In this document: in pieces, positions 7,257 through 8,390 of the stretch
Numbering within the stretch: the stretch's first letter is position 1
How the letters are laid out: every line of letters begins with the position of its first letter
Source: a virus
Strand: one strand, 5' to 3'
DNA: 64,000 nucleotides
Virus record (IMG/VR): IMGVR_UViG_3300048999_000052
Coordinates: 19,491-83,490 of that record
Position numbers and translations under genes: made by a program
Notes under the pieces: model-generated
What the model was told of the DNA's origin: nothing
What the model saw: the letters and a program-made list of their open reading frames with translations, nothing else
Databases searched by the model: none

Positions 7257-7483
7257 TTCTTGGGCTCCCTTCCCAGCATCTGCATGAAACGCAGATCTTC
7301 TGGGCTGAAGTCTTTTTTGCCAGCCCTGACTTCTTCGGCCAGGGTGTGGATCTTGCTGGTCTCGTCCTGGAGGGACTTAACCAGAGCCCGGTGGATCAAG
7401 ACCCTGATGGTGACCAGGATGATGGTCTTGACCAGCAGGTAGATGACCAGGTTCCGGATCGCTTGCTTCTGCTCGGAGTTCAC
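7253..7483 (-). CDS. Single-pass membrane protein, 76 aa
   Basis: It starts with GTG at 7483, overlapping the upstream TGA (GTGA). After a short polar N-terminus, residues 10-30 form one hydrophobic helix (IRNLVIYLLVKTIILVTIRV). The rest is a charged helical tail (ALVKSLQDETSKIHTLAEEV) that could form a coiled coil. It is likely an N-terminally anchored membrane protein with a cytoplasmic or periplasmic stalk. Function is unknown. Confidence 0.7.
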   Translation of the reverse strand: MNSEQKQAIRNLVIYLLVKTIILVTIRVLIHRALVKSLQDETSKIHTLAEEVRAGKKDFSPEDLRFMQMLGREPKK

Positions 7484-7650
7484 AGACTGGCCGCCTTCTT
7501 CTCCAGCTTGATCCGAGCGTCGATGGCGGCAGCCGCGAGGGTACCGAGGACAGCTACGGTCGGGGTCAGGGCTGCCAGGGCAGACTTCACGCCGATCCGG
7601 GTAGCAGTCTTCTTGAGCTGCTGGGTGTTGGGCTTGCTGAGCTTCTTCAC
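7480..7650 (-). CDS. First gene after the leftward leader: small membrane protein, 56 aa
   Basis: GTG at 7650 is preceded by GAGGAGAG and lies 29 nt after an intrinsic terminator hairpin. The peptide has a basic N-terminus (MKKLSKPNTQQLKKTATRIG), one long Ala/Leu/Val membrane helix (ALAALTPTVAVLGTLAAAAI) and a charged C-terminus. A longer frame from 7743 would start inside the leader structure. As the first gene of the main leftward transcript it would be controlled by any attenuation at the leader. Function is unknown. Confidence 0.7.
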   Translation of the reverse strand: MKKLSKPNTQQLKKTATRIGVKSALAALTPTVAVLGTLAAAAIDARIKLEKKAASL

Positions 7651-7681
7651 TGTTCTCTCCTCAGACATCTGGACATGCAAA

Positions 7682-7707
7682 AACCCCGCACCGGTTGGTA
7701 CGGGGTT
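7682..7707 (-). terminator. Intrinsic terminator or attenuator in the leftward leader
   Basis: Read leftward, arms at 7701-7707 and 7682-7688 pair over 7 bp, extended by a 3-bp inner stem (7697-7699 with 7690-7692) and a 4-nt loop. A run of five U (7679-7683, partly in the stem) follows. It lies between the strong leftward promoter and the first gene, so transcripts would meet it about 105 nt after starting. It is a diverged copy of the hairpin at 1378-1406. Confidence 0.75.
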
Positions 7708-7724
7708 GCTCTGCTGCTCGCTTC

Positions 7725-7812
7725 GGCCCTGGGGGGCCTCCACTCGCTATCAGCAGTCCCGGCTCTTCTCTGTGAGGATCTATAGCCTCAGGAAGGCATG
7801 CGGAACTGCTGA
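7725..7812 (-). promoter_or_regulatory. Structured 5' leader of the leftward transcript
   Basis: Bases 7801-7812 and 7750-7761 form a 12-bp stem with one G-U pair. Inside it TGAGG pairs with CCTCA across an 8-nt loop. A third small hairpin (7734-7738 with 7725-7729) follows before the terminator. The predicted transcription start, about 7813, sits directly at the base of the long stem, so the RNA would begin with this hairpin. It may be an RNA control element (attenuation, antitermination or 5'-end protection). Confidence 0.6.
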
Positions 7813-7819
7813 TGAGATA

Positions 7820-7848
7820 AATATACCCTAATCTGCCCTGTTTTGCAA
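7820..7848 (-). promoter_or_regulatory. Strong sigma70-type leftward promoter
   Basis: On the minus strand TTGCAA (7843-7848) and TATATT (7820-7825) are separated by exactly 17 bp, in an A+T-rich stretch that stands out from the surrounding sequence. The expected start is A at about 7813. It would drive the leftward operon beginning at 7650. This is the best promoter match I found in the window. Confidence 0.75.
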
Positions 7849-8144: not shown

Positions 8145-8390
8145 TCAGACCTCCTCGCAGTCGCAGGGAAGTACGAGCCAGCACTTAGGACAAGTCTGGA
8201 TCGACCTTGGAGTGGACTTGTGCCGAGCGTGATGGATCTGACCGTTAGCGCCGAACCGCGCTGTCTGGCCGATCTCGATCAGTTCGTTGCACTTCGAACA
8301 CACACCCTGGTGCAGAGCCTTGAAGCTGGACCGCGGCTTCTTCCGGGGCTCCTGCATGTACAGGACGGGTGATTCCTGAATGATCTTCAT
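8145..8390 (-). CDS. Small zinc-finger-like protein, 81 aa
   Basis: ATG at 8390 follows GGAGG with 5-nt spacing; the longer frame upstream would overlap the palindromic control site. The protein begins MKIIQESPVLYMQEPRKKPR, then contains GVCSKCNELIEIGQTARFG, a histidine pair (IHHARH) and TCPKCWLVLPCDCEEV. Three CxxC-type pairs plus His strongly suggest a zinc-binding fold. Its position next to the divergent control region makes a regulatory role possible but unproven. Confidence 0.7.
   Translation of the reverse strand: MKIIQESPVLYMQEPRKKPRSSFKALHQGVCSKCNELIEIGQTARFGANGQIHHARHKSTPRSIQTCPKCWLVLPCDCEEV

What the first reader, a model, noticed from the sequence alone, without database searches (positions are those of the whole stretch)
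7650..7848. Promoter, 5'-terminal hairpin and terminator stacked before the leftward operon
A near-ideal promoter (TTGCAA, 17 bp, TATATT) predicts an RNA starting at about 7813. Bases 7801-7812 pair with 7750-7761 over 12 bp, so the transcript would begin with a long hairpin (inner TGAGG/CCTCA), then a small hairpin, then an intrinsic terminator 29 nt before the first gene. A terminator between promoter and first gene makes sense only if it is conditionally bypassed. The closest known idea is the lambdoid HK022 put RNAs, structured RNAs at the transcript start that make RNA polymerase ignore terminators, or a classic attenuator. This may be an RNA-based control switch for the whole left arm.
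Basis: partly seen in the sequence, partly recalled or inferred. Interest (0 to 1): 0.85.

Follow-up and report, generated by a model that had tools for sequence, protein, structure and literature searches.

The report
Phage leader RNA with early terminator
A phage gene block begins with a promoter whose RNA folds at once into a long hairpin and then meets a stop signal just before the first gene; the same layout recurs many times in related uncultured phages, so it looks like a shared but undescribed on/off gate for early genes.

Summary
On the minus strand: promoter TTGCAA-17-TATATT (7848-7820), a 13-bp hairpin starting at the predicted first base (7813), a small hairpin, an 11-bp terminator with U5 (7707-7679), then a GTG gene at 7650. 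The leader folds far better than shuffles (z -5.7).

It is not a one-off. A second unit lies 9.5 kb further left in the same contig. I found 18 candidate units in ten phage records (this one and nine uncultured relatives, 49-55% identical in DNA polymerase III) and one more in an eleventh record by a terminator-blind scan: extended -10, hairpin starting at +1/+2 (15 of 18), terminator, then usually a gene. A promoter model from two phages found units in others. The exact stem has no copy elsewhere; stems match in position, not sequence. Covariation is thin.

The terminator beats any alternative fold by 12-25 kcal/mol, so a classical attenuator is unlikely. Best reading: a promoter-proximal leader-terminator gate, opened by a trans factor (like lambda pR'-tR') or by the leader (like HK022 put). 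Small-RNA genes are the main rival. "Whole left arm" is too strong. No expression data exist. No Rfam match.

The parts
7820..7848 (-). sigma70-type promoter: -35 TTGCAA (7848-7843), 17-bp spacer, -10 TATATT (7825-7820)
   Evidence: only TATATT on this strand in the contig; scores 8.6 bits with the extended -10 model of related units
7749..7813 (-). 5'-terminal hairpin of the predicted RNA: 13-bp closing stem 7813-7801/7749-7761 with inner stem-loop (UGAGG/CCUCA); predicted start A7813
   Evidence: z -4.6 to -5.7; hairpin at +1/+2 in 15 of 18 units
7725..7738 (-). small hairpin GGCCC-CCCA-GGGCC
7679..7707 (-). intrinsic terminator: 11-bp stem, 4-nt loop, U5 (7683-7679)
   Evidence: same kind of terminator in relatives
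7671..7678 (-). post-terminator tail GCATGTCC; TTTTGCATGTCC exact only at four leader terminators in 20 records
   Evidence: a similar tail follows an ordinary gene-end terminator in the contig
7655..7661 (-). Shine-Dalgarno AGGAGAG of the first leftward gene
   Evidence: sequence
7480..7650 (-). first gene behind the terminator: 56-aa hypothetical protein (GTG start)
   Evidence: no PHROG family, no Pfam match above cut-off

Best explanation
A promoter-proximal leader-terminator gate. A sigma70-type promoter makes an RNA that folds at its very 5' end into a stable hairpin and, by default, most transcripts stop at the intrinsic terminator about 130 nt later (promoter, hairpin and terminator are shown in sequence only; start site and termination are inferred). 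The gene block behind it (about 9.3 kb to the next such unit) is expressed only when RNA polymerase reads through. Because the 5' hairpin and the terminator are separate, compatible folds, the switch is probably not a riboswitch-like rearrangement but something acting on RNA polymerase near the promoter: a phage factor loading at the promoter or on the 5' hairpin (as lambda Q does at pR'-tR'), or the leader RNA itself (as HK022 put). The same gate is repeated before several left-arm gene blocks in this clade, so one factor could control them together. The opening factor is not identified.
For: Observation confirmed. Second unit in the same contig with the same tail. 18 candidate units in ten phage records; the first paired base falls at +1/+2 of the predicted start in 15 of 18, and in 0-6 of 18 if the start is moved 2 to 12 nt upstream (random windows 45%). 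Hold-out: with a -10 model trained on two phages, 9 of the 15 best promoter hits in the others have a terminator 15-170 nt downstream, against 2.45% of random positions; three of the misses are units on reading. A scan with promoter plus 5' arm and no terminator in the pattern found one new phage record, and its hit is again hairpin + terminators + gene. In 14 of 18 an open reading frame of 35 codons or more starts within 16 to about 100 nt behind the terminator with no new promoter seen by eye; two lie at contig ends. Two tRNA-type units are instead followed by a new promoter. No competing antiterminator fold: the terminator wins by 12-25 kcal/mol.
Against: No transcript, start-site or termination data. 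No antiterminator protein identified (only part of the proteins scanned). U-tracts are short (3-5 U in most units), so leakage alone might suffice. The 5' hairpins of different units in one phage mostly differ in sequence, against one shared recognition site; the shared AGCU(A/G)UG motif has no alignable common helix. In two relatives the 5' hairpin itself is directly followed by a T-rich tail (L060 2988, L055 4665). Covariation weak.
Confidence: 0.5

Rival explanations
1. Small-RNA genes. Each unit is a free-standing gene for a 60-135-nt structured phage RNA that acts in trans and ends at its own terminator; the neighbouring protein genes are expressed by leakage or from elsewhere.
For: Promoter + structured RNA + terminator is the textbook form; tRNA and tRNA-like genes in the same phages have that form. 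Orthologous units keep much of their own sequence between phages.
Against: Units sit directly before gene starts with no promoter seen between (sequence); units keep the same downstream gene in G003 and G005; in L008 and L033 a start codon follows the U-tract at once and the Shine-Dalgarno lies in the terminator's 3' arm, which suggests action in cis.
Confidence: 0.25
2. Put-like RNA antitermination: the 5' leader binds the emerging RNA polymerase and makes it ignore the terminator and later ones, without any phage protein (a sub-case of the gate, scored apart).
For: 5'-terminal structured RNA right behind left-arm promoters, as putL in HK022 (PMC9378689).
Against: Number and size of hairpins vary from one short hairpin to three; no shared fold. 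Behind the reported unit no further strong leftward terminator occurs for about 9.4 kb, so processive action is not needed.
Confidence: 0.12
3. Static throttle: a strong promoter with a leaky terminator sets low expression, and the 5' hairpin only protects the RNA 5' end from decay.
For: Short U-tracts after strong stems; hairpin exactly at the predicted 5' end, where known stabilising hairpins sit (general knowledge).
Against: A weaker promoter would do the same more cheaply; it does not explain the repeated upkeep of strong terminator stems that change sequence but stay paired between orthologous units.
Confidence: 0.12

Closest known systems
Lambda and phage 21 late operon: pR' - short leader RNA - tR' - late genes, opened by Q
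   Same: Promoter, short RNA, intrinsic terminator before the first gene; the genes need read-through (PMC6606751).
   Different: Here there are several units per genome, on the left arm, each starting with a 5'-terminal hairpin; no Q, Q-binding element or pause element was identified or tested.
HK022 putL/putR
   Same: Structured RNA at or near the start of early transcripts (PMC9378689).
   Different: put RNAs share sequence, are about 70 nt with two stem-loops, and act on distant terminators; here hairpins differ between units and the terminator is immediately adjacent.
Classical attenuators and riboswitch expression platforms
   Same: Terminator in the leader before the first gene.
   Different: No mutually exclusive antiterminator fold; no Rfam family match at gathering score.
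Start-associated repeats of cluster K mycobacteriophages (recalled, not tested)
   Same: Repeated small elements before many genes; some Shine-Dalgarno sequences here sit in hairpin loops.
   Different: As far as I recall those are not promoter-hairpin-terminator units; no sequence comparison was made.

Membership tests
Lambda pR'-tR' type leader-terminator gate (Q-dependent) | Promoter, short untranslated leader, intrinsic terminator, then genes with no other promoter between | tested here: met
   sequence 7848-7650 (by sequence only)
Lambda pR'-tR' type leader-terminator gate (Q-dependent) | Q protein, Q-binding element between -35 and -10, and promoter-proximal -10-like pause element | not tested
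   No Q family appeared among the window proteins scanned, but not all proteins were scanned and the DNA elements were not modelled
HK022 put antitermination RNA | About 70-nt RNA of two stem-loops at the start of the transcript, with shared sequence between copies | tested here: not met
   First hairpin domain 8-121 nt, one to three hairpins, different sequences within one phage
HK022 put antitermination RNA | Binds the beta' zinc-binding domain of RNA polymerase and suppresses terminators without protein factors | not testable with these tools
   needs in vitro transcription
Classical attenuator | Mutually exclusive antiterminator and terminator folds | tested here: not met
   5' arm of the terminator paired upstream with probability 0.06; best fold without the terminator 20.1 kcal/mol worse
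Small-RNA gene | Own promoter and own terminator | tested here: met
   (by sequence only)
Small-RNA gene | Stable RNA acting in trans | not testable with these tools
   no expression data
Any described RNA family (Rfam 15) | Covariance-model match at gathering score | tested here: not met
   window: 0 matches; relatives: only an ordinary tRNA; at E<=2 no match falls on the leader or the second unit

The most novel reading that the evidence does not exclude
A put-like, RNA-only antitermination regulon outside the lambdoid phages: many different 5'-terminal hairpin leaders in one phage genome each license RNA polymerase to pass the terminator directly behind them.
Probability: 0.12. Interest if true: 0.85.

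Novelty: new variant of a known kind. Interest (0 to 1): 0.6.

Why it matters
Promoter-proximal terminators that gate a phage operon are classic in lambda, usually once or twice per genome. Here the layout is repeated before several left-arm gene blocks across a clade of uncultured phages with no close cultured relative, together with a hairpin exactly at the predicted RNA 5' end. If the gates are regulated, one factor or the leaders themselves would control early expression genome-wide, and the units are short enough to test directly with reporters.

Tried and rejected
DNA search of 901 bases of the region against 50,697 phage records: no match; the L054 unit likewise. Exact stem pattern in IMG/VR: none. 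Tail pattern TTTTGCATGTCCNGATG in IMG/VR: 14 hits, none with a terminator hairpin, mostly coding-like sequence. Stem pattern GCGCCAGAGG..CCTCTGGCGC: found the two source phages and one chance match. Helicase scan found no relative; the genome-contig scan found none, so the host is unknown. Tail as a leader-only signal: weakened, because an ordinary gene-end terminator in the contig has a similar tail. Leader peptide starting at the AUG of AGCUAUG: rejected, the AUG is not kept in other units. Common helix of the AGCUAUG class: none by RNAalifold on a MAFFT alignment. Formal covariation of the reported stem: not possible, it does not align with relatives. The promoter model and the terminator association are partly circular; the hold-out test and the terminator-blind scan are the non-circular checks. 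Competing antiterminator: rejected.

Full report
What is there. The window is bases 19,491-83,490 of an 83,490-base IMG/VR virus contig, 61% G+C. On the minus strand, 7848-7650 reads: -35 TTGCAA, 17 bp, -10 TATATT, predicted start A7813, a 13-bp hairpin 7813-7801/7749-7761 with an inner stem-loop, a small hairpin 7738-7725, an 11-bp terminator 7707-7682 with T5 7683-7679, a tail GCATGTCC, AGGAGAG and GTG at 7650. The fold is far better than shuffles (z -5.7 for the leader, -4.6 for the 5' hairpin), although in plain energy the hairpin is in the top 2% of windows, not unique. A strict scan finds six strong intrinsic terminators in the contig.

A second unit in the same phage. At contig 17,826-17,699 (locus L002, left of the window) a TGTGGTATAAT promoter is followed by three small hairpins, a terminator of 11-12 bp and the same tail TTTTGCATGTCC, then a gene about 100 nt further on. 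The reported unit can therefore serve about 9.3 kb, not the whole left arm.

Relatives. Cultured phages are distant (about 36% in DNA polymerase III) and the region has no DNA match among them. IMG/VR scans with the polymerase gave relatives, the useful ones at 49-55% identity. Their left arms hold the same layout: extended -10 (consensus TGTGNTANACT), hairpin at once, strong G+C-rich terminator, then a Shine-Dalgarno and a gene. After thresholding the promoter model I kept 18 candidates in ten records, the window's contig included. One is tRNA-like (G017 30839), G003 53039 has no strong first hairpin, and G018 23572 and G019 15429 are near-identical copies, so the independent number is nearer 15. 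The first paired base is at +1/+2 of the predicted start in 15 of 18; moving the assumed start 2-12 nt upstream drops this to 0-6, while moving it up to 4 nt downstream does not. Random windows give 45%, so the register with the promoter, rather than pairing as such, is the point.

Is the association real? The promoter model was built from sites first seen near terminators, so counts made with it are circular (13 of 24 promoters with a terminator downstream, 2 with one upstream). Two checks are not. With a model trained on G003 and G005 only, 9 of the 15 best hits in other phages have a terminator 15-170 nt downstream against 2.45% of random positions, and three further hits, L055 4665, L103 18403 and L060 2988, prove to be units on reading. 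A scan of IMG/VR with promoter plus 5' arm, no terminator in the pattern, returned only G011, the source, and one new record, L117, whose hit has a hairpin, two terminators and then a gene. As a contrast, in the cultured Brevibacterium phage Cantare several terminators are followed by a TTGACA promoter, the ordinary order, and Gordonia phage GMA6 shows no clear unit (by reading); the same promoter model finds no promoter in the part of Cantare fetched and two in GMA6, one of them with a terminator downstream.

Conservation. The reported stem has no sequence relative and aligns with the G010/G011 stems only in the first bases (TTATCTCA behind the -10 is shared with G011 25976). Orthologous units of G003 and G005 keep their terminators paired through changes in sequence. 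A hairpin shared by G003, G005 and G017 keeps 97.6% of pairs with two compensatory changes, but with three sequences this does not exceed shuffles. TTTTGCATGTCC occurs exactly at the four leader terminators of G000 and G011 and nowhere else in 20 records, yet a similar tail follows an ordinary gene-end terminator. Several units also share AGCU(A/G)UG near the top of the first hairpin; five of 20 such sites in 541 kb lie just behind an extended -10 (background 0.55%), but the motif was chosen after the fact and the model overlaps the test set.

How it may work. In the leader, the terminator's 5' arm is hardly paired upstream (0.06) and the best fold without the terminator is 20 kcal/mol worse; other units range 12-25 (a few, such as G000 17,826 at 0.52, do pair part of the arm before the 3' arm is made). 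A classical attenuator is therefore unlikely. As there is no room for a promoter in the 28 nt between terminator and gene, the gene needs read-through. That leaves a factor acting on polymerase near the promoter, as lambda Q (PMC6606751), the leader acting on polymerase, as put (PMC9378689), plain leakage, or a small-RNA gene with an incidental neighbour. I favour the gate because units sit directly before genes (14 of 18), keep the same downstream gene between G003 and G005, and in two relatives place the Shine-Dalgarno inside the terminator; two tRNA-type units, by contrast, are followed by a new promoter. One tRNA-like element in G003 is followed directly by a gene, so this contrast is not absolute. 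No step after the sequence is shown.

Limits. No expression data, no known host, contigs partly incomplete, and no put sequence or Q elements were compared. Not every protein was scanned for antiterminators.

Noticed in passing
L024:2358-2411 (+), L025:394-447 and L027:2175-2228 (+; the last two probably the same site): Sub-threshold Hammerhead_II matches (29.6-32.4 bits, cut-off 37) on the left arms of relatives G005 and G003: candidate phage hammerhead ribozymes.
   Followed up: no
L033:11530-11600 (+) and L005:3520-3600 (-): tRNA-like remnants (acceptor and T arm, little else) in front of terminators and genes in relative G003; ARAGORN reports no tRNA in L005.
   Followed up: no
L002:133-209 (-): tRNA-Met gene near the end of the contig with a strong terminator right behind it (131-106).
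   Followed up: no
L053 near 3328-3290 (-), L054 near 4117-4080 (-) and other units: Shine-Dalgarno sequences sit in the loops of small hairpins directly before the start codon, for example CATGTGG-AAGGAGA-CCACATG.
   Followed up: no
L053:3365-3328 (-) and L054:594-562 (-): Terminator loops are complementary to the bases just behind the U-tract (CCCCGTAC/GTACGGGG; GTCCCCC/GGGGGAC): possible pseudoknot.
   Followed up: no
window 8148-8390 (-): A leftward 81-aa cysteine-rich, zinc-finger-like protein lies upstream of the reported promoter, so another leftward transcript may approach the leader.
   Followed up: partly
L055:4665-4590 (-), L060:2988-2930 (-): Units in which the 5' hairpin itself is followed by a T-rich, ATG-containing tail, so hairpin and terminator may be one element.
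   Followed up: partly
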